Of a stretch of 46,063 nucleotides of DNA, positions 5,555 through 38,348 are shown in pieces; within the stretch, counting starts at the first letter, position 1; each line of letters opens with the position of its first letter. The notes beneath the pieces are model-generated. The model did not search any database and was not told where the DNA came from. It saw only the letters and a program-made list of their open reading frames with translations. Source of the DNA: a virus; IMG/VR virus record IMGVR_UViG_3300031507_000009, positions 1-46,063 of that record; one strand, written 5' to 3'. The translations under genes were made by a program, and so were the position numbers.

Positions 5555-7486
5555 TTACCAAAGACGCCCGTCCCAGGGTTGTATACCCCCTGAGGCCATG
5601 GCGAAGTCCACGTCCACAACGAACTGGTTTTCATGATCCCGCTCGGAGACGAACTCCGATCCGAGGTGATAGTCGCTGTACTCCGACTGCATCATCTCCC
5701 GGCAGCGGATCTCGGTGAACCACAGGGCATGCAGGCAGTCCCAGTGACCGGCCTGCGTATGCGCCCGGGTACCGGCCGGTACGGGGTTCCAAGTGGTCAG
5801 CTCCTCCACCAGCTTCCGCGATCCCTCGCTCTGGAAGCGCGAGGGCAGGCGGATGAGGTTGGCCTTGGTCGCAGAGCCCTGGAAGAGCGTGGCCATGGAG
5901 GAGATGCCGTAGTTGGAGTCCCACTTGTTGGCGCCGGTGAAGTGACCGGTCATGACGCAGCCACGGCCGTACAGGTACGTCCGCAGCTCCTCGTCCTGAA
6001 TGATCGAGCCCTGGAAGGCGTTCTTCTCGATCCGCCACTCGGAGATCCGGTAGCGGTCGGTCCAGGTGCGGATCAGCTCCCGGAGTTCGTGGGGGCGGGT
6101 GCCTCGCTTGTTGTACACGTCCAGCACCCATCGCACGCCGGTCTGGCGGTCCAGCCCGACCACGACGGCGGCGGTATTACCCACGTCGGCCGGGTCGAGC
6201 CCGGCGACAATGAACAGTCCCTCCATGCCGTGCTTACGATGCCCGGAAACTCCGGGTACCAGCCGACCGGCGTACCGCTGCTCATCGATGCACCCCATCA
6301 CGTCGGAGGTGGCGAAGACCTGGTCGTCGGCCACCTGCTCCTGCTGATAGACCATCGACCAGTTGCGCGGGCTCATGCGCGCCCGCTTGCGGGCCAGCGC
6401 CCTGCCGTGCCACATGGGCCACAGGCCCTCTCGGGGCCAGCCCTGCTCGGTGAGCACGCGGCGGCCCGCGATGGAGACCGGAGACCGATTCGTCATCGGC
6501 CACAGGGTCTTCCACTCGTCCGAGGTCTCGGCCGTCTCCAGGACGGCCGGTTGGGTCAGATAGGTCCACGGGGAGGCGTCCTCGCCGTAGTACTCGGACT
6601 TCATGATCTCGGAGTACAGATCGGTGGTCTCGATGCGCGTGCCCACCACGATCATCTTGCCGCCCGCGTCCGCGACGCGGGACATGACCATGTTCTGGAT
6701 CCAGTCGATCTGCTTGACGTAGTCCCCGTGGTTGGTGTGGTCAACGCAGTCATCCATGATGACCAGGTCGGCACGGGAGCCGTAGATGTGGCCCTTGATG
6801 CCCAGGGCCTGGACCGTGGGGTCCTTCTCGCCGGATTCGCGTCCGGCGACGTAGATACGGTCAGCCGTCCAGGAGGCGGACCCTTCGGCGAATCCGCCGG
6901 GCGGTCCGAACTTCGTCTGAAGCTGGTAGTAGGTGTCCGACTCGGCGAGTCGCTCCTTGATCGACAAGAGGAACTTCTTCGCCATGTCCTGGGTCTTGGA
7001 GACGATCAGGACGCGGATGTTGGGGTCCTGGCAGATCCGCCACGTCACGTAGTTGACGGTGATGGTGGTGGACTTGGAGTGCTCCGGCGGGGTGTTCACC
7101 AGGACCATGTCCGGCTCACCCTGTACGAAGTACTGGGCAGGGTGCAGGTCCCGGGGGGCCCTGCCCTCCAGGAGGTCGTACCACTGGAGCTGGTGCCAGA
7201 ACATCGTGGTGTCGAGGTAGTCCTGCGAGAACTCCGGGAAGTCCGGGATCTCCACCGCGTTGGCGGTGCGGCGCTCCGCCTGGGTCTGGCGGACTTCCTC
7301 CACCAGGCGGCGGAAGTCCGGATCGTTCTTGCGCCAGTAGGCGTAGGTGCTCTCCGCCTTGCCGCAGGACTTCAGCGCCTGCGCGACGGAGAAGCCGGAG
7401 CGGATGGCGGAGATGAAGACCTTCTTGGAGTTGGCGCTGTCATAGACAGTGCCCCCTCCGGCCTTGGATACGTAGACCCGTGCCAT
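5555..7486 (-). CDS. terL: Terminase large subunit with fused N-terminal HTH
   Basis: The 643-residue DNA-packaging motor has a Walker A-like loop NTPPEHSKST (131-140) of the form seen in large terminases, a Walker B LVIMDD (241-246), a motif III-like VVGTR, and a RuvC-like nuclease domain starting at AGLDPADVGNTA. Residues about 22-65 (ISAIRSGFSVAQALKSCGKA then STYAYWRKNDPDF) form a helix-turn-helix resembling small-terminase DNA-binding domains. No separate small terminase gene is visible, so the large subunit may carry its own recognition domain. The ATG at 7486 closely follows the 24-aa gene upstream. Confidence 0.93.
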   Translation of the reverse strand: MARVYVSKAGGGTVYDSANSKKVFISAIRSGFSVAQALKSCGKAESTYAYWRKNDPDFRRLVEEVRQTQAERRTANAVEIPDFPEFSQDYLDTTMFWHQLQWYDLLEGRAPRDLHPAQYFVQGEPDMVLVNTPPEHSKSTTITVNYVTWRICQDPNIRVLIVSKTQDMAKKFLLSIKERLAESDTYYQLQTKFGPPGGFAEGSASWTADRIYVAGRESGEKDPTVQALGIKGHIYGSRADLVIMDDCVDHTNHGDYVKQIDWIQNMVMSRVADAGGKMIVVGTRIETTDLYSEIMKSEYYGEDASPWTYLTQPAVLETAETSDEWKTLWPMTNRSPVSIAGRRVLTEQGWPREGLWPMWHGRALARKRARMSPRNWSMVYQQEQVADDQVFATSDVMGCIDEQRYAGRLVPGVSGHRKHGMEGLFIVAGLDPADVGNTAAVVVGLDRQTGVRWVLDVYNKRGTRPHELRELIRTWTDRYRISEWRIEKNAFQGSIIQDEELRTYLYGRGCVMTGHFTGANKWDSNYGISSMATLFQGSATKANLIRLPSRFQSEGSRKLVEELTTWNPVPAGTRAHTQAGHWDCLHALWFTEIRCREMMQSEYSDYHLGSEFVSERDHENQFVVDVDFAMASGGIQPWDGRLW

Positions 7487-7564: not shown

Positions 7565-7602
7565 GGGGGGCGGTGCTGTACGGGTCATACGGCCCAGGGT
7601 AG

Positions 7603-7631
7603 TTGCAGGCGCATGCAGTGGGCCCTATGGG
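7603..7631 (+). promoter_or_regulatory. Putative sigma70-type promoter, rightward
   Basis: TTGCAG and TATGGG are separated by exactly 17 bases and lie upstream of the first rightward gene. The expected transcript start falls at the beginning of the hairpin at 7638. Only the hexamers and spacing support this. Confidence 0.4.
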
Positions 7632-7637
7632 AAAATG

Positions 7638-7665
7638 GAAGAGGACCCGGCTAGGGGTCCTCTTC
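7638..7665 (+). other. Leader hairpin
   Basis: GAAGAGGACCC and GGGTCCTCTTC form a perfect 11-bp stem around a 6-base loop. It lies between the putative promoter and the ATG at 7685, so it would form the very 5' end of the mRNA. It could stabilise the message, or act as a terminator for leftward read-through. Confidence 0.6.
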
Positions 7666-7684
7666 ACCACATGAAAGGCACTTC

Positions 7685-7939
7685 ATGTACGCGCGTTACA
7701 ACGGTACCTGCAATCTCTGCGCAGGTGCGATCTCCGTAGGAGAAGAGATCGGTAAGTGGCTCAACCGGGCCGTGCACCTTACATGCCGTGGGATCGAGAT
7801 TGAGCGCCGGAAGGCGAACCTCGAAGGAGCGATTCAGCTCCCCGACGGACCCACCGAAAAAATCACCGGGTACGGCTACACGACCGGCTGGTCCACCCGG
7901 AAGGTCCGGGGTGGACAGCGGAGGCGTCCCAAGCGCTGA
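7685..7939 (+). CDS. Zinc-binding-like early protein, 84 aa
   Basis: The protein begins MYARYNGTCNLCAGAISVGE and continues to VHLTCRG, giving a CxxC plus HxxC pattern common in small actinophage proteins. The C-terminus is strongly basic (RKVRGGQRRRPKR), suggesting nucleic-acid binding. An AAAGG site precedes the ATG. It is the only gene between the late-operon start and the long noncoding hairpin tract, and a GC hairpin follows it at 7963. Its function is not known. Confidence 0.75.
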   Translation: MYARYNGTCNLCAGAISVGEEIGKWLNRAVHLTCRGIEIERRKANLEGAIQLPDGPTEKITGYGYTTGWSTRKVRGGQRRRPKR

Positions 7940-7962
7940 CCTGCGGTTTTTGCGGATGTAAG

Positions 7963-7978
7963 CCCCCCACCTGGGGGG
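7963..7978 (+). terminator. GC hairpin after first early gene
   Basis: Six Cs and six Gs pair around ACCT, followed by TT. It lies 24 bases after the stop codon at 7939 and directly abuts the next promoter-like TTGACA. Terminator function is likely but the T-run is short. Confidence 0.5.
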
Positions 7979-8009
7979 TTGACACTTACGACTAGGATGG
8001 CGTTAATAC
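7979..8009 (+). promoter_or_regulatory. Putative promoter of the hairpin-array transcript
   Basis: A consensus TTGACA lies at 7979-7984. Downstream, GTTAAT starts at 8002 (17-base spacer) and TAATAC at 8004 (19-base spacer); either could serve as the -10. No gene follows for 1.5 kb, so the product would be a noncoding RNA beginning at about 8015. Confidence 0.5.
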
Positions 8010-8615
8010 AAGGCGCGTCGGCGCGCGCAAGGGCCCGGGTCGGCCCCCTCAGGGGTCGGCCCAGAGGCCGTAAGAAATACGCCGCAGTGCGGCGCTACCG
8101 GGGGGCTCGAACCCAGGGATTGCGAAGAATCCCTGGGGAGAGACCATCCATGGCATCGCCAGGGCCATTAAAAAGGCCCTGGTCGATGCGAGGTGGCACG
8201 GCGTGCCACATGTAGGGCACAGAGCGGTGCTCTGGCCCTTACAGGGGGCTCAAAGCTGGCACTGAGTGCCAGCTGGCGATGCCATGCATCGCAGGCGACA
8301 CTCCATGCATACGCATGAGTGTCGCATCAGGGGGGGTACATACATGCACCACGGCGTGGTGCACAGCAGCGGCGCAGCTCATACCAGCCGTAGGTCAGCC
8401 CTACAGGCTGACCGAGCGGCTGAGTATGGGGTGGTGCAACGCACCACAGCGGGCAGTGCCCGCATCGGCGGAGCCGTGTCCATGCCTGAGGGCATGGCCA
8501 CGCTCTCGCCGCTCCCTCACGCCCGTCCGGCGTGAGGACAGCTCCTCATGGTGGGCCAATGGCCCACGCGGATCTGCGGCGCAGATCCGTATACGCGCAC
8601 GCGTGAAAGTTTTTG
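8010..8615 (+). ncRNA. Hairpin-array noncoding region (putative structured RNA)
   Basis: About 600 bases are tiled with non-identical hairpins: 8037-8062 (with G-U pairs), 8080-8094, 8112-8137, 8153-8189, 8193-8209, 8214-8239, 8254-8274, 8276-8292, 8295-8325, 8345-8363, 8380-8428, 8431-8447, 8449-8463, 8467-8510, 8515-8537, 8551-8567, 8569-8589 and 8593-8604. Stems are mostly 6-10 bp. About ten loops are exactly three bases (GGC three times, AGT twice, GGT, TGA, CAT, AAC, AAT). The last hairpin leads into GAAAGTTTTT, a terminator-like end. A consensus -35 box lies just upstream. No stem sequence is shared between units, so structure rather than sequence seems selected. No convincing coding frame is present. 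Confidence 0.6.
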
Positions 8616-8683
8616 ATCATCCTCCTACCCGGCTTGTCATGTCCTTGCCATCCGTCTGCCCCCTCAGGGCAGGGCGGATGATC
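8615..8683. other. Nested inverted repeats after the array
   Basis: GATCATCC (8615-8622) can pair with GGATGATC (8676-8683). An alternative stem at 8649-8680 pairs CATCCG-CTGCCC with GGGCAG-CGGATG. The two pairings share GGATG and are mutually exclusive, so this could be a structural switch. A further TGCGTG-CTA-CACGCA hairpin lies at 8699-8713. Confidence 0.45.
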
Positions 8684-8771
8684 TCCATTTCCCACTCATG
8701 CGTGCTACACGCACGTAGTCACATCGTGAGATAGCTCCCTACTCATCAGTATGATCAAAGCTCTGACCTGC

Positions 8772-8800
8772 TCCTTTGTATCCTTTGATATCCCTTTACC
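8772..8800. repeat. Three spaced TCCTTT-like direct repeats
   Basis: TCCTTTG, TCCTTTG and TCCCTTT start at 8772, 8781 and 8791, about 9-10 bases apart. They lie in the most AT-rich patch of the noncoding tract. Spacing near one helical turn suggests protein binding; a replication-origin iteron or regulator site is possible. Three short copies are weak evidence. Confidence 0.35.
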
Positions 8801-8840
8801 TCATCCGATGTTGACCTGCTCACCCGCTATGGGGAGTCTC

Positions 8841-9013
8841 GAATTGCACAACCCGCCCAGCACCACCGGACAGCTCGCCCCCTGAGGGGGCTTGAGGGTC
8901 CGGGAGGCGCCGGGAGCGAGACCCCCTCCGAGGGTCGCTCCCGAGAGTGGCCGGTACAGCGCACGGGAAGCGGGATGAGATGCCCGTCCAACGGAGCGCA
9001 CGACGTGCAATTC
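8841..9013. other. Structured domain closed by a 9-bp long-range helix
   Basis: GAATTGCAC at 8841-8849 is the exact reverse complement of GTGCAATTC at 9005-9013. Between them lie GCCCCC-TGA-GGGGGC (8877-8891) and a long stem at 8911-8943 (9 bp, a two-base bulge, then 3 bp). The arrangement resembles a multibranched RNA or a cruciform-prone domain. No gene is seen in it. Confidence 0.45.
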
Positions 9014-9420
9014 AGAACTCAACAGCGACGCACACGAGACTGACGCGGGAGCGGCGGTCGCGGTAGGTGCCTAGGCCGAGGGGCCGGGGGCATACCACCG
9101 CGATGAACGTCCCTCCCCGCTTACGGCCAGCACCTACATTCATGCCGAGGCGAGGTACAGCGGGTCTCCTGAGTGCGAGTGATGATGTGCGCTGCCATAG
9201 GCGCACAGGCATGCACTGCCTACCCGTACAGAGCCACGTACGGGCCGTGGACGCGCCGGAAGCGCGTCCCCTACCGGTTGGGTGACAGCCGGTCCACAAG
9301 AGCCTCACAAGGGCACAGGGCACCGCGTATCGGTGCCTCCCGTGAGTGAGTGGACGCTAGTACGCACCATGGCGAGAGTGATGGTGTGCGGGGGCGCATG
9401 ATGGCGCCCCACATGACGTT
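9014..9420. other. Gene-free tract with further hairpins
   Basis: I see no credible gene here on either strand. Hairpins are at 9249-9269 (GGACGCGC paired with GCGCGTCC), 9273-9293, 9319-9337 (GGCACCG-CGTAT-CGGTGCC), 9365-9386 and 9391-9410 (GGGGCGC-ATGATG-GCGCCCC). The part 9014-9240 shows nothing I can name. It serves as the leader of the early operon that begins at 9514. Confidence 0.5.
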
Positions 9421-9506
9421 ACGGGGGCACCTTCGGGTGCCCCCGTGTCCGTCGGTGCCGTCAGGGATCACCCCTGACGGTTCGCATCGGACTACTCCGA
9501 ACGGAG
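9421..9506 (+). promoter_or_regulatory. Three-hairpin gene-start cassette 1
   Basis: The cassette has an 11-bp GC stem with a TTCG loop (9421-9446), a second stem CCGTCAGGG/CCCTGACGG (9458-9480), and a small hairpin CTCC-GAAC-GGAG (9495-9506) carrying the Shine-Dalgarno of the gene at 9514. The first element has terminator form but no long T-run. Confidence 0.65.
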
Positions 9507-9513
9507 AGCGATC

Positions 9514-9831
9514 ATGAGCAATACCGAGCAGTACGCATGGACTCACCTCGAAGGTGACCCACGCAGTGAGCGCCCGGTCCAGCGTGACCAGGTGGTCTAC
9601 AGCGCCAGCGGCGAGGCCTGGTACTTCAAGGGCGTCACGCTGCCCGCGTACGGCAACAGCAGTGGACGCGTGAGCGTCTCCCGCACATGCCCGGACGCCT
9701 ACACCGCGTCCAGTGGTGTGCAGGAGTGCCCGCACATGTGGCACCGCAACGGCATCGACACGCAAGAGTTCTTCCCGCACGTATTCGGCCTGTACCTCGG
9801 CGACTCCGAGGGAAACGAGGTTTGGCGATGA
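9514..9831 (+). CDS. Hypothetical early protein, 105 aa
   Basis: The product begins MSNTEQYAWTHLEGDPRSER and contains an aromatic-rich central part (EAWYFKGVTLPAYGN) plus two cysteines (TCPDAY, ECPHMW) that might bind metal. No family is recognised. It is the first gene after the long noncoding tract and starts seven bases after a conserved Shine-Dalgarno hairpin. Its stop overlaps the ATG of the next gene (ATGA), so the two are probably co-translated. Confidence 0.75.
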   Translation: MSNTEQYAWTHLEGDPRSERPVQRDQVVYSASGEAWYFKGVTLPAYGNSSGRVSVSRTCPDAYTASSGVQECPHMWHRNGIDTQEFFPHVFGLYLGDSEGNEVWR

Positions 9832-14407: not shown

Positions 14408-14499
14408 CGGCAGAGTGAGGGTCGGTCACCTCAGGCAACTGTGCACTTGCCGCCCCCCGGAATGCGGGGGCTTCCCTGGTTCGAATCCAGGTCTGCCGA
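14408..14499 (+). tRNA. Atypical class II-like tRNA with 8-nt anticodon loop
   Basis: The 92-base sequence has a perfect 7-bp acceptor (CGGCAGA/TCTGCCG), a D arm GAGG/CCTC, an anticodon stem GGCAA/TTGCC around CTGTGCAC, a long variable arm (GCCCCC/GGGGGC), and a canonical T arm CCTGG-TTCGAAT-CCAGG. No CCA is encoded. After U33 the anticodon would read GTG (His), but the long variable arm and A73 do not fit His, and the loop has eight bases. It could be a frameshift-type, regulatory or degenerate tRNA. Confidence 0.6.
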
Positions 14500-14543
14500 C
14501 GGACTCACGGGGCGTGAGTCGTTCATCCCGAAGAGGAGAGATC

Positions 14544-15188: not shown

Positions 15189-15322
15189 TGGCGGGAAATG
15201 GCAGTGAGAGGGTTCAATCCCCTCCTTGGCATGGTTGCTAGGCCGTGGGCCGAACAGGTGTCCGACGTTGTGATGACAAGTGAATGGACACCGCTGGGCA
15301 GGTTCAATTCCTGCCCCCGCCA
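15189..15322 (+). other. tRNA-like segment with two T-arm motifs
   Basis: GAGGG-TTCAATC-CCCTC near 15210 and GCAGG-TTCAATT-CCTGC at 15298-15314 are both canonical T arms. TGGCGGG (15189-15195) can pair with CCCGCCA (15316-15322) like an acceptor. A GGTGTCC/GGACACC stem lies between them. The whole does not fold as one or two standard tRNAs, so it may be a degenerate tRNA pair or a tRNA mimic. Confidence 0.3.
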
Positions 15323-15366
15323 CTGCGCCACCTCAAGGTGGCGTGACATATCGGAGAGGAACCGAC

Positions 15367-16926
15367 ATGGCAGACAACGCGGGCAACGCGGCGAAGCGAC
15401 TCCTGGACCTGGTCCAGGCCAAGCACACGGAGGCAGCTACGGGGCTGTCTCAGGAAGAGAAGTCGGCCGCCGCCGCAATGGCCCTGCTCGCCGAGATCGG
15501 CGGAGCGCGGGCCAACGAGAACGACCTGACGTTCGAGGGGACCAAGTTCGTTCTCCCCTCGCGATACAACGGCCGGATCCCCGAGGCCGTGACGTACCTG
15601 AACAACGTCGTCAAGCAGCAGTCGCAGTACCACGACTACAACAAGGTGTTCGACTACCGCCCGTACGACGTGGCGAACGCCCTTCAGCTCGCCCTCAAGG
15701 AGGTGTTCGGCACCTCCGGTCTGGGCGAGACGATCCAGACCATGTTCGGCCCGATCCACCCCGAGTTCGTCGAGGTGCCGGTCGGCGTCGGCGAGTCCGT
15801 CCAGGTCCCGTACAACCGCGTTGCCTTCCCCCCGCTGGGGGCGGACGCGTACATGAACATCAGCCAGGACCACACCCGGGAAAAGGGGTGGCTCGGTTAC
15901 ATCACCATGCACGCGCCGCGTGCGGCGAAGGCCCAGGTCGAGGGCCTGTTCAAGGTGGTGGAGAAGAAGCTCAAGGACCACTCCATCTACCGGGGCAAGG
16001 CCCTTATCGGCGGCGACCAGATCATGCCGCAGTTCCTGGACGTGCGGAAGGTCAACCCGGACCACGTCATCTACTCGGACAGCGTCCTTCAGCAGCTCAA
16101 CGCCAACATCTGGGCGCTGATCGAGCACACCCCCCTTATGCGGGAGCTGGGGGAGTCCCTCAAGCGCGCGGTACTGCTTGAGGGACCGTACGGAACCGGC
16201 AAGTCCCTCGCGGCCTTCCTGACGGCCCAGCGGGCCGTCGCCAACAACTGGACGTTCCTGTTCGTGCGTCCGGGCGACGACCTGGACGCCGCCATGCGCA
16301 CCGCGCAGCTCTACGCCCCCGCCGTGGTGTTCTTCGAGGACATCGACGTTATCGGCGACGCCGGTGACCCGGCGAAGGTCTCCAAGCTGCTCGACAGCTT
16401 CGACGGAATCGGCGCGAAGGGCGCCGAGGTGATCGCGGTCCTGACGACCAACCGGAAGGACAAGATCCACAAGGGCATGCTGCGTCCGGGGCGCCTGGAC
16501 GCCGTGATCACGATCAACCAGCTCGACCAGGAGGGCGTCAAGAAGCTGATCGCCTCGAAGGTCCCGGCCGACATGATCAGCCTGGGCCTGGACTACGAGG
16601 CCATCTACGCGTCCTTCAAGGACTTCACCCCCGCGTTCGCGGCCGAGGCCATCAGCCGGACCAAGCGGTTCGCCATCGCCCGCGAGGGCAAGAAGCCGGA
16701 CTACCTGGCCACCGGCGACTTCACCGCTGCGGCCGACAGCCTGCGCCCGCAGCTCGAACTGATGAAGGAAGCCTCGGAGGAGAAGACCACTCCGACGGTG
16801 GACAAGGCCTTCCAGAGCCTCGTCGCCGACGTGGTGGACAAGATCCAGTTCGTGGACGACGACGGCGACAAGAACAACAGCTACGACGCGGACGGCCTCA
16901 AGGTTGACCGCGAGACGCTGATCTGA
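15367..16926 (+). CDS. AAA+ ATPase (FtsH/Cdc48-like core), 519 aa
   Basis: The ATPase core has Walker A GPYGTGKS (273-280), Walker B VVFFEDID (320-327), sensor 1 TN at 361-362 in LTTNR, and an MLRPGR motif (371-376) with the arginine finger seen in classic AAA proteins such as FtsH and Cdc48. The N-terminal 240 residues match no domain I know and may bind substrate. No zinc protease motif follows, so it is more likely an unfoldase or remodelling ATPase than a protease. The ATG at 15367 is preceded by GGAGAGGAACCGAC. It is the largest early gene and stands alone between structured intergenic regions. Confidence 0.88.
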   Translation: MADNAGNAAKRLLDLVQAKHTEAATGLSQEEKSAAAAMALLAEIGGARANENDLTFEGTKFVLPSRYNGRIPEAVTYLNNVVKQQSQYHDYNKVFDYRPYDVANALQLALKEVFGTSGLGETIQTMFGPIHPEFVEVPVGVGESVQVPYNRVAFPPLGADAYMNISQDHTREKGWLGYITMHAPRAAKAQVEGLFKVVEKKLKDHSIYRGKALIGGDQIMPQFLDVRKVNPDHVIYSDSVLQQLNANIWALIEHTPLMRELGESLKRAVLLEGPYGTGKSLAAFLTAQRAVANNWTFLFVRPGDDLDAAMRTAQLYAPAVVFFEDIDVIGDAGDPAKVSKLLDSFDGIGAKGAEVIAVLTTNRKDKIHKGMLRPGRLDAVITINQLDQEGVKKLIASKVPADMISLGLDYEAIYASFKDFTPAFAAEAISRTKRFAIAREGKKPDYLATGDFTAAADSLRPQLELMKEASEEKTTPTVDKAFQSLVADVVDKIQFVDDDGDKNNSYDADGLKVDRETLI

Positions 16927-17583: not shown

Positions 17584-17745
17584 ATGGAGAAGTGGCTCAA
17601 GGTCAAGGAGGTCGCGGAGGAGTTGCGCGTTTCCGGCATGACCGTTCACCGCCTGCTCAAGGCAGGGAAACTCAAGGGCGTCCGCATCGGGCGCGCATGG
17701 CGCATCAGTGAGGACTCGCTTCGCGAGTACCTCAATCAGAGCTGA
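17584..17745 (+). CDS. MerR/excisionase-type HTH protein, 53 aa
   Basis: The sequence MEKWLKVKEVAEELRVSGMT followed by VHRLLKAGKLKGVRIG and RAWRIS is a textbook HTH_17 domain (helix-turn-helix with a short wing), as in excisionases and small phage regulators. At 53 residues it is a bare DNA-binding domain. No integrase is present, so a regulatory or DNA-architectural role is more likely than excision. It begins three bases after the upstream stop codon, and the ParB-like gene follows about 10 bases after its own stop. Confidence 0.85.
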   Translation: MEKWLKVKEVAEELRVSGMTVHRLLKAGKLKGVRIGRAWRISEDSLREYLNQS

Positions 17746-17755
17746 GGAGATCTCT

Positions 17756-18658
17756 GTGGAAACGAACCCGCGCACCCGTCCCGAAGGGGACGACATGACC
17801 CCGGAGAACAGCCTCTACCGGCTGCCCTCCGTTGCCCAGAAGGTGGTGGTCACCCCGGACATGGCCAGCGACTGGCTGTCCTTCCGGAACCATCCCCTCA
17901 ACCGCCCGCTCAGCCCCTCCATCACCGAGAAGTACCAGCGGGTGATGGCGACCGGCAACTGGCGCGAAGGTACGCCGGAGGGCTACATCTTCGACACCGA
18001 GGGGAGGATCATCTCCGGCCAGCACCGGCTGAAGGCGCAGGCCAACGGCAACTACACGCTGGAGATGTGGATCTTCCCGGATGAGCCCCGCGACATCTTC
18101 GACGTCGTGGACCAGGGCTATAAGCGGACCGCCGCGCACCTGCTGCGCGTCAAGTACGCAACCAACCTCGCCTCCGGCGCCCGCATCCTCAAGGCCCTGG
18201 ACGACATCGACCGCTTCGGCATGCCGAAGTACAACCGGCTCAGCACCACCGAGGTGGTGCACACCTTCAAGGAGTGGCCGGAGCTGGAGTGGTACGGCGC
18301 GGAGCTGTTCGCCGCGTATCACGACGGCGGGGTCCCGATGGGCCCGCACGCCGCCGTGATGGCCCAGGCGGCGCGCACCGACGCCCGGGACCGCATCCCG
18401 GAGTGGCTGGAGCAGGTGGCCACCGGCCAGAACCTCGACAGGACCAACCCTGCCTGGCACCTCCGGCGCAAGTTCATGGTCTCCGGCGTCACGCTCAAAC
18501 GCGGCGTCAGCGCTCAGACCATGAACTACTCGCTGATCACGAAGGCATGGAATGCCTTCGCGGCGGGTGAGAGCATGGCCGTTCTGCGGCACGCCACCAA
18601 TGAGCCGATCCCGGACGTGTCCGAGTACCCGCGCTCCCTGCTCCGAAAGGAAAGCTGA
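17756..18658 (+). CDS. ParB/sulfiredoxin-like domain protein, 300 aa
   Basis: Residues 40-110 fit the ParB-like nuclease fold: a 'RPLSPSITEKYQRVMATGNW' helix and strand, then IFDTEGRIISGQHRLKAQAN, where GQHRL is the conserved loop. The C-terminal 170 residues are helical and unassigned. Such proteins in phages can act in DNA binding or modification; the role here is not shown. The GTG at 17756 is chosen for its GAGGAGA site; ATG 17795 is the alternative. The neighbouring HTH gene may be functionally linked. Confidence 0.8.
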   Translation: METNPRTRPEGDDMTPENSLYRLPSVAQKVVVTPDMASDWLSFRNHPLNRPLSPSITEKYQRVMATGNWREGTPEGYIFDTEGRIISGQHRLKAQANGNYTLEMWIFPDEPRDIFDVVDQGYKRTAAHLLRVKYATNLASGARILKALDDIDRFGMPKYNRLSTTEVVHTFKEWPELEWYGAELFAAYHDGGVPMGPHAAVMAQAARTDARDRIPEWLEQVATGQNLDRTNPAWHLRRKFMVSGVTLKRGVSAQTMNYSLITKAWNAFAAGESMAVLRHATNEPIPDVSEYPRSLLRKES

Positions 18659-19078: not shown

Positions 19079-19794
19079 GGTGGCTGGAGGAAGTACCGCA
19101 CGAGACGGATAACCGTGTGGCGCTTTACGAGCGCTACCGAGCCGGAGGGCTCAGGTATCCCAAGGGGGTGTGGACGCATGCGCTGATCGAGGAGTACGAG
19201 ATCGACCCCACGGTGGCGCACGTCGCCTGGGAGACCGGGGTCCTCACGGAGAGCAACTCGTCGGTCATCTCGGACGAAGGCACCCCCATGCGCTGGCTGC
19301 CAGCGATGAAGTACGACACCTGGGCATTCGCGCCCGAGCGGGTCGAGATTCTGTCTTTCGACACCATAGGTCCCTCCTACTCTCAGGCGTACGCCGATCG
19401 TCATCAGGTACCGGAGGTGCCCGTTGGGCCGCGCAGCGGAGATGAAGGCATTGATCGAGATCCTGGAGGATCCGACAAATGCGGACAAAACGTCCGAGGA
19501 TCTGGCGGAGGAACTGATCGACTCCCTCGACGCGACCCGGGGGCGCACGCACCGGATCGCCGTGGTCGGCCAGATCAGCCACGAGACGCCGGAGGGCGGT
19601 TTGTCAGAGCCCCAGACAGTAGTGCTGGGACCGTACTCATCCCGAGGTTTCCTGACCACCCCAGAGAAGTTCCGCCAGTCGGCGGCTGGAGCTGGGACCG
19701 CACGGAGCGACGGCCAGCAACTGGCCTGGGACAGCAAGACAGGCACGGGGAAGGGCCGGTTCATGCTGGTACCGGTCTTCCACCGGCCTCGTGA
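19048..19794 (+). CDS. Early protein with anomalous overlapping C-terminal extension
   Basis: The first ~130 codons (from MAVEVNEEGVRWLEEVPHET) look like a normal protein. The frame then stays open for another 370 bases on top of the next gene. That tail is low-complexity (Arg, Gly, Asp, Pro) and looks like an out-of-frame translation. The natural stop may have been lost, or a frameshift may join the two genes. Ribosome site: GGGGGCTGCA. No family is recognised. Confidence 0.55.
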   Translation: MAVEVNEEGVRWLEEVPHETDNRVALYERYRAGGLRYPKGVWTHALIEEYEIDPTVAHVAWETGVLTESNSSVISDEGTPMRWLPAMKYDTWAFAPERVEILSFDTIGPSYSQAYADRHQVPEVPVGPRSGDEGIDRDPGGSDKCGQNVRGSGGGTDRLPRRDPGAHAPDRRGRPDQPRDAGGRFVRAPDSSAGTVLIPRFPDHPREVPPVGGWSWDRTERRPATGLGQQDRHGEGPVHAGTGLPPAS

Positions 19795-20029
19795 TGCCTG
19801 GAACTTCTACCGCACCGAGAAGCCAGGATGGGCCGACAACTGGCCCCATATTGCCGAGAGCATCGAGCAATGGCAGCCTGGCCTGTGGGCCGAGACCACT
19901 CGGCCCGTCTGCGCCTGCGGAAGGCGCGACGCAACCCATGAATCAAGCGGCGGGCAACTCTTTGATGCCGCGCCGTACGTGTGCCCCATCCACCCGGGCG
20001 GGGGCGCCCGGGACCGAGAGGAGAACTGA
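19424..20029 (+). CDS. Hypothetical early protein, 201 aa
   Basis: A TTG at 19424 lies six bases after GGAGG and gives MGRAAEMKALIEILEDPTNA; ATG 19442 is the alternative. The N-terminal part is acidic and helical. The centre (VVLGPYSSRGFLTTPEKFRQ, GRFMLVPVFHRPRDAW) is a pattern I have seen only in phage hypotheticals. The C-terminus has VCACGRRD and CPIH, possible zinc ligands. Codon third positions in the overlap favour this frame over the upstream one. Confidence 0.75.
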   Translation: MGRAAEMKALIEILEDPTNADKTSEDLAEELIDSLDATRGRTHRIAVVGQISHETPEGGLSEPQTVVLGPYSSRGFLTTPEKFRQSAAGAGTARSDGQQLAWDSKTGTGKGRFMLVPVFHRPRDAWNFYRTEKPGWADNWPHIAESIEQWQPGLWAETTRPVCACGRRDATHESSGGQLFDAAPYVCPIHPGGGARDREEN

Positions 20030-38271: not shown

Positions 38272-38274
38272 CAG

Positions 38275-38348
38275 TGGCGGGGGCCGGATTCGAACCGGCG
38301 TCTCCGGGTTATGAGCCCGGTCTGGGACCTAACTCCAGTTACCCCGCT
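38275..38348 (-). tRNA. Initiator-like tRNA-Met (CAU)
   Basis: The minus strand folds into a 74-nt tRNA with anticodon CAU in a CTCATAA loop. It has 6 acceptor pairs plus an unpaired A1-C72, three stacked G-C pairs (29-31/39-41, GGG/CCC) below the anticodon loop, and a T arm GCCGG-TTCGAAT-CCGGC. The 1-72 mismatch and the three G-C pairs are hallmarks of bacterial initiator tRNA, and the core GGGCTCATAACCC is the same as in E. coli tRNA-fMet. CCA is not encoded. The 5' end overlaps the stop codon of the preceding gene. Confidence 0.85.

What the first reader, a model, noticed from the sequence alone, without database searches (positions are those of the whole stretch)
7979..8615. Noncoding array of about 17 different hairpins behind its own promoter
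After a consensus TTGACA, about 600 bases are tiled with near-perfect hairpins (list and coordinates in the feature). Ten or so have loops of exactly three bases. Stem sequences are all different, so this is not a repeat family; what is kept is the form. G-U pairs at 8037-8062 and a terminator-like T-run after the last stem fit an RNA. Such an array is not in any class of phage RNA I know. It could titrate an RNA-binding protein or nuclease, shield the message, or act as a scaffold. All functions are inference.
Basis: partly seen in the sequence, partly recalled or inferred. Interest (0 to 1): 0.92.

Follow-up and report, generated by a model that had tools for sequence, protein, structure and literature searches.

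The report
Hairpin-folded end of phage genome DNA
What looked like an array of RNA hairpins is most likely the spot where a Streptomyces phage cuts its DNA into genome lengths, built in about 40 related phages so that the predicted end of the DNA strand can fold back on itself much as the ends of Streptomyces' own linear chromosomes do.

Summary
In detail: 7990-8610 holds 16 near-perfect hairpins, 10 with 3-base loops (14 of at least 6 bp against 0.95 in shuffles; fold z about -17). About 40 relatives carry such an array upstream of the terminase gene, with changed sequence but kept form. It is a family new to Rfam; a model built without the window finds it at 8113-8311 (E 7e-6).
The RNA reading fails key tests. 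Stems covary strictly Watson-Crick: 137 double changes and no G-U in the long-range helix, whereas RNase P shows 130 G-U per 253 double changes. Neither strand folds better, and the TTGACA is not conserved.
Six cultured sister phages (Beephvirinae) carry an end motif, ...GTTAA, in their terminal repeat; in five it stands 23 nt before the genome end. Its profile's 20 best hits in array phages all lie inside the array core. In array phages a conserved CC|A lies 21-23 nt from the same TTAA, and the ~15 nt next to that predicted end pair perfectly with a site ~105 nt inside (14 bp, 140 nt in the window).
Best reading: a telomere-like, fold-back packaging/terminal-repeat site acting as DNA. The end is predicted, not mapped. 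A transcript is not excluded.

The parts
7990..8610 (.). whole hairpin array (16 near-perfect hairpins plus long-range helix)
   Evidence: counterpart arrays in about 40 relatives
8113..8311 (+). conserved core; match to covariance model R2, which was built from 25 relatives without the window
   Evidence: 33.6 bits, E 6.5e-6, only match in the window
8035..8064 (.). hairpin on the terminase side of the predicted cut; holds the only two G-T pairs (and one C-A)
8112..8137 (+). hairpin H1 (CCCAGGGATT-GCGAAG-AATCCCTGGG), beside the predicted cut
   Evidence: by position and context the counterpart of helix 1 of A2/A4
8145..8146 (.). predicted genome end (GAGACC|ATCC), 22 nt from the TTAA at 8168; inferred, not measured
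   Evidence: spacing 23 nt in 33, 22 in 8 and 21 in 3 of 44 array phages; 23 nt from TTAA to the genome end in five cultured sisters
8149..8162 (+). terminal arm of the fold-back helix (P2, 14 bp in the window), 3 nt from the predicted end
   Evidence: covariation of P2
8273..8286 (+). inner arm of the fold-back helix, pairs with 8149-8162
8159..8182 (-). hairpin H2 (terminase-sense CCAGGGCC-TTTTTAAT-GGCCCTGG), at the position of the genome-end motif GACCCSGGGKTTGTTAA; the window copy is diverged, L032 is nearly exact
8193..8589 (.). peripheral hairpins 8193-8209, 8220-8234, 8254-8274, 8276-8292, 8345-8363, 8393-8413, 8431-8447, 8449-8463, 8475-8502, 8515-8537, 8551-8567, 8569-8589
8589..8605 (+). 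alternating CG tract (GTATACGCGCACGCGTG) closing the array; counterpart ACGCGCRYGCGCGAGG in roughly half of the arrays
5555..7486 (-). terminase large subunit, the late-operon gene next to the array
   Evidence: phrog_38, E 6e-72

Best explanation
The array is a cis-acting DNA element, not primarily an RNA gene. It is the packaging and terminal-repeat region where the terminase cuts concatemers into genomes. Shown: the core is kept in a whole clade of Streptomyces phages, always upstream of and antisense to the terminase gene; it carries the genome-end motif of cultured sister phages in the same orientation; its helices covary with Watson-Crick pairs only. Inferred: the cut lies at 8145/8146. 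After cutting, the 3'-ended strand of the right genome end can fold back, its last ~15 nt pairing with a segment 100-140 nt inside and enclosing hairpins. The remaining hairpins make the terminal repeat fold compactly when single-stranded, for example while the repeat is duplicated by strand displacement or when ends are resected. This would prime or guide repeat duplication and shield the end. Template switching during DNA replication probably helps keep stems perfect and flips loops.
For: (1) Six cultured Beephvirinae carry ACCCSGGGKTTGTTAA in the terminal repeat upstream of terminase; in five the genome record ends exactly 23 nt after TTAA. The four complete records have direct terminal repeats of 263-396 bp, 254-678 bp upstream of terminase. 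(2) A profile of that motif searched over 531 kb of array-phage DNA: the top 20 hits all lie in the array core, 19 of them in the isolate orientation; reversed-sequence control best 4.7 bits against 13.3. (3) A conserved CC|A stands 21-23 nt from the same TTAA in array phages. (4) Fold-back at that point: median 15 bp, 91% at least 10 bp, against 5% outside and 3% elsewhere in arrays. (5) Long-range helix: A2 has 41 double-changed cells over both helices, none one-sided; A4 P2 has 13 of 13 pairs changed on both sides and no G-U. (6) RNase P control: 130 G-U to 253 double changes. (7) Loop inversions and repeated loops within arrays, a DNA-level process described in PMC8794818. (8) GNA triloops favoured on the terminase-sense strand, 75 against 24.
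Against: No end of an array phage was mapped; the cut is predicted from sister phages. The individual motif hits are weak (best E 0.03); it is their joint position that is strong. The terminal sequence GGGGGAGTG and the left-boundary motif of the sisters are not found in array phages. Conserved unpaired purine motifs on the + strand (GGAGACC, UUUAACA, GGGUCA) also suit an RNA. Window loops are not GNA. Unpaired positions are A-rich on the + strand, though no more than in the downstream control. Sister phages package without an array, so the array is not essential in general.
Confidence: 0.62

Rival explanations
1. A large structured phage RNA of the ROOL/GOLLD kind, transcribed on the + strand, acting as scaffold or protein decoy; template switching keeps its stems perfect.
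For: Very strong fold and covariation; conserved single-strand motifs always on one strand; A-rich unpaired positions on +; weak T-run terminator. Template switching can keep RNA hairpins perfect without G-U steps (PMC8794818).
Against: No G-U preference in 753 hairpins and none in P2, unlike RNase P; equal folding of both strands; promoter not conserved; no Rfam match; the core coincides with a genome-end motif.
Confidence: 0.2
2. A replication origin or single-strand initiation site whose hairpins are read in single-stranded DNA by primase or helicase loading factors.
For: Watson-Crick-only pairing; inverted DnaA boxes (TTATCCACA) between terminase and array in L058, L063, L066, L015; divergent early/late junction.
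Against: DnaA boxes absent in the window, L032 and most relatives; does not explain the genome-end motif and its fixed spacing.
Confidence: 0.09
3. A mutational by-product: a stretch prone to template switching that keeps generating perfect hairpins without being selected for them.
For: Whole-hairpin insertions and deletions, loop inversions; the array is the least conserved stretch (61% against 81% in the 3' flank).
Against: Present at the same place in nearly every relative long enough to judge; P2 pairs over about 100 nt at a fixed point with all 13 pairs covarying.
Confidence: 0.09

Closest known systems
Telomeres of linear Streptomyces chromosomes and plasmids (PMC4513846)
   Same: Tightly packed palindromes; the terminal 13 nt pair with an internal palindrome (within 91 nt) with hairpins in between; short loops closed by G-A pairs; same host genus. 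Here ~15 nt pair ~105 nt inside.
   Different: Sister phages have direct terminal repeats, not inverted ones; no Tpg/Tap was noticed (not searched systematically); no common ancestry tested; the window's own triloops are not GNA.
Direct-terminal-repeat packaging ends of Beephvirinae (Immanuel3, Manuel, Stella, FlowerPower, Dennebes)
   Same: Motif GACCC..GGGKTTGTTAA, same orientation and distance range from terminase; 23-nt spacing to the end
   Different: Sisters lack the array and the long fold-back helix; array phages lack GGGGGAGTG at the predicted end
ROOL and GOLLD large phage RNAs (PMC12286853)
   Same: Large, many-stemmed, phage-borne, conserved core with variable periphery
   Different: No Rfam match; no G-U pairs in the core helix; both strands fold alike; not beside a tRNA island
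Hairpin promoters of the N4 virion RNA polymerase (PMC4496689)
   Same: DNA hairpins with 3-base loops (from general knowledge of N4); the capsid protein of this group has been annotated as N4-type
   Different: No virion RNA polymerase found: the large virion protein matches only phrog_10618 of unknown function

Membership tests
ROOL/GOLLD-type phage RNA | match to the Rfam covariance models | tested here: not met
   no match at gathering score, none at E up to 10 on 7600-9600; relatives
ROOL/GOLLD-type phage RNA | RNA-like evolution of stems (G-U intermediates) | tested here: not met
   against RNase P; one GOLLD copy as comparison
ROOL/GOLLD-type phage RNA | expressed transcript | not testable with these tools
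   no expression data
Terminal-repeat/packaging site of the Beephvirinae group | genome-end motif at the right place and strand | tested here: met
   20 of 20 best hits in the core; spacing
Terminal-repeat/packaging site of the Beephvirinae group | physical genome end and duplicated terminal repeat at this place | not testable with these tools
   the window is a circularly closed record with a 127-bp overlap; no reads
Terminal-repeat/packaging site of the Beephvirinae group | left-boundary sequence GTACAGTCCC of the repeat | tested here: not met
   profile finds nothing significant in array phages
Streptomyces telomere | terminal segment complementary to an internal segment with hairpins between | tested here: met
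   median 15 bp, 91% at least 10 bp; window 14 bp at 140 nt; relative to a predicted, not measured, end
Streptomyces telomere | GCA/GNA loops with sheared G-A closing | tested here: inconclusive
   enriched clade-wide on the terminase-sense strand, 75 against 24, but none in the window
Streptomyces telomere | terminal inverted repeats at both ends with terminal protein Tpg and Tap | tested here: inconclusive
   the array occurs once in the circularly closed window record and sister phages have direct repeats; Tpg/Tap were not searched
N4 hairpin promoters | virion RNA polymerase encoded by the phage | tested here: not met
   no RNA polymerase match in the large virion protein

The most novel reading that the evidence does not exclude
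A clade of tailed dsDNA phages has telomere-like genome ends: the cut end of the terminal repeat folds back on itself and carries a row of more than ten interchangeable DNA hairpins, recognised by form and not by sequence, possibly through the telomere proteins (Tap/Tpg) of the Streptomyces host.
Probability: 0.25. Interest if true: 0.9.

Novelty: new variant of a known kind. Interest (0 to 1): 0.74.

Why it matters
If true, tailed phages and Streptomyces chromosomes share the same solution for a DNA end: a fold-back of about 15 nt enclosing hairpins. It gives a concrete, testable handle on how direct terminal repeats are duplicated during packaging. It also carries a warning for RNA discovery: strong covariation can come from DNA, and the lack of G-U intermediates is the tell-tale.

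Tried and rejected
Repeat family, CRISPR or REP: no shared stems. Rfam RNAs, also in relatives: none. G-U versus A-C polarity for a + or - strand RNA: none. A-richness of unpaired bases as a sign of RNA: seen, but the downstream control is as skewed. Conserved promoter: no. N4-type virion RNA polymerase promoters: no polymerase found. GC-skew origin signal: no clear minimum at the array. Contig ends cluster 300-1300 bp upstream of terminase (21 of 34), but by inspection they are spread through the array and not at one offset, so they may only show hard assembly. Left boundary of the terminal repeat: not found. A wrong Rfam number was searched first for GOLLD; the right one gave a single actinobacterial copy, too few for statistics. 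Searches failed on input errors.

Full report
What is there. The window is a circularly closed phage record (127-bp identical ends). It belongs beside the Beephvirinae of Streptomyces: terminase about 50% identical to Immanuel3, Manuel, Abafar and Stella. The structural genes, terminase included (5555-7486), run on the minus strand and the early genes on the plus strand; about 2 kb of mostly noncoding DNA separates them, and the array lies in it. The array holds 16 near-perfect hairpins, ten with 3-base loops. It far exceeds chance: 14 stems of at least 6 bp against 0.95 in shuffles, fold z -17.3 as RNA and -16.5 and -17.5 as DNA on the two strands.

A family. Terminase relatives were collected from viral contigs and bacterial genomes. 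Streptomyces is the host where one is named, including S. hoynatensis, S. composti, S. himalayensis and two unnamed strains. The 36 non-redundant relatives with at least 1.3 kb upstream were folded. Nearly all have a dense hairpin cluster 300-2000 bp upstream of terminase (L061 is sparse), whereas the lower-GC distant relatives and six cultured Beephvirinae have none. Sequence diverges fast: against the nearest relative L032 the array is 61% identical and the DNA 3' of it 81%. Whole hairpins are gained, lost and replaced.

A conserved core. Nineteen cores align without structure input (A2). A local helix and a 13-bp helix between segments about 90 nt apart pair in 100% of cells, with 41 double-changed cells and no one-sided change; shuffles give 10.4 and slid versions at most 5. 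A model from A2 finds the core in most other members, in the same orientation; the weak opposite-strand hits overlap the same places. A second model, built from 25 divergent cores (A4) without the window or L032, finds the window at 8113-8311 with E 6.5e-6 and L032 with E 2e-5. In A4 all 13 pairs of the long helix change on both sides (137 cells), 98% paired, with no G-U; A4 is fitted to the structure, so the sequence-only A2 is the cleaner test.

RNA or DNA. RNA helices normally show G-U steps. In actinobacterial RNase P at similar divergence there are 253 double changes, 130 G-U and 21 A-C. In the arrays 753 hairpins hold 6047 Watson-Crick, 78 G-U and 103 A-C pairs. Minus-strand folding is no worse than plus (plus better in only 12 of 36). 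Loops repeat within an array, and inverted loops are also in excess (97 same and 49 inverted pairs against 44 and 28 expected). Perfect stems, loop inversion and new hairpins are what template switching in DNA replication produces (PMC8794818). So pairing is felt at the level of DNA. This does not by itself exclude a transcript.

The genome end. Cultured Beephvirinae carry direct terminal repeats of 263-396 bp lying 254-678 bp upstream of terminase. All six isolates examined have ACCCSGGGKTTGTTAA there, and in five the record ends exactly 23 nt after TTAA, at ...GAGTG (for L042 the script counted a second TTAA, and the first one gives 23). The Abafar record runs further. A profile of these ends, searched over 531 kb of array-phage DNA, placed its 20 best hits all in the array core at hairpin H2; 19 are in the isolate orientation and one is an overlapping opposite-strand hit. 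A reversed-sequence control gave one hit of 4.7 bits. Distant relatives without an array show the motif weakly at 400-680 bp as well, so the motif is probably older than the array. In array phages a conserved CC|A stands 23, 22 or 21 nt from the same TTAA (33, 8 and 3 of 44), although most of the bases in between vary. In the window this predicts the end at 8145/8146.

Fold-back. Starting 0-8 nt after the predicted end, the terminal segment pairs perfectly with a site usually 100-140 nt inside: median 15 bp, at least 10 bp in 91%, against 5% outside and 3% elsewhere in arrays. The window has 14 bp, 8149-8162 with 8273-8286; L001, L002, L032 and L100 have only 6-8 bp. Streptomyces telomeres have the same plan: a 13-nt terminal palindrome complementary to an internal one, with hairpins between (PMC4513846). 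GNA triloops are favoured on the terminase-sense strand, which would have its 3' end here (75 against 24); the window itself has none.

Mechanism. Shown: conserved place, motif, spacing and pairing. Inferred: terminase cuts at CC|A; the exposed 3' strand folds back; hairpins keep the repeat compact when single-stranded and may prime or guide its duplication or shield it. Why this clade has many interchangeable hairpins and its sisters none is unexplained.

Limits. No ends or transcripts are measured. Single motif hits are weak. Genes conserved with the array but absent from four Beephvirinae genomes include an AAA ATPase (15280-16926) and two unknown proteins (17708-18658, 19424-20029), but the loci cover only part of each genome.

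Noticed in passing
L058 303-326, L063 230-253, L066 90-113, L015 128-151 (bases upstream of terminase): Inverted pairs of TTATCCACA (DnaA-box consensus) between terminase and array; absent in the window.
   Followed up: partly
upstream of the array in L012, L058, L063, L064, L081, L084, L123, L082 and others: Conserved block CAGCTAAGCTCGACCCAGCGAAGCTCGACCGGAAGG with AAGCTCGACC twice; possibly a promoter or operator.
   Followed up: no
window 8589-8605 and the distal end of roughly half of the arrays: Alternating CG tract ending GAGG/GAAA; similar CG-rich tracts lie just outside the terminal repeat of cultured sisters.
   Followed up: partly
window 38274-38348 (-): Only one clear tRNA (Met), while cultured Beephvirinae carry about 15-22.
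   Followed up: no
window 14408-14500 (+): ARAGORN reports an odd tRNA-like gene with a four-base anticodon (gtgc); not in Rfam results.
   Followed up: no
arrays of L032, L087, L001, L009, L090: Loops are alike within one phage and differ between phages (ACC/GGT, CAT/ATG, TGC, GAT), often in both orientations.
   Followed up: partly
window 15280-16926 (+): AAA ATPase (phrog_10440) found with array phages but not in four Beephvirinae genomes searched.
   Followed up: partly
window 7685-7939 (+): 84-aa ORF with a Cys-rich motif just before the array; relatives only in L014 and L136 among those searched.
   Followed up: partly
viral contigs of this clade: 21 of 34 contigs that end within 4 kb upstream of terminase end at 300-1300 bp, mostly inside the array.
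   Followed up: partly
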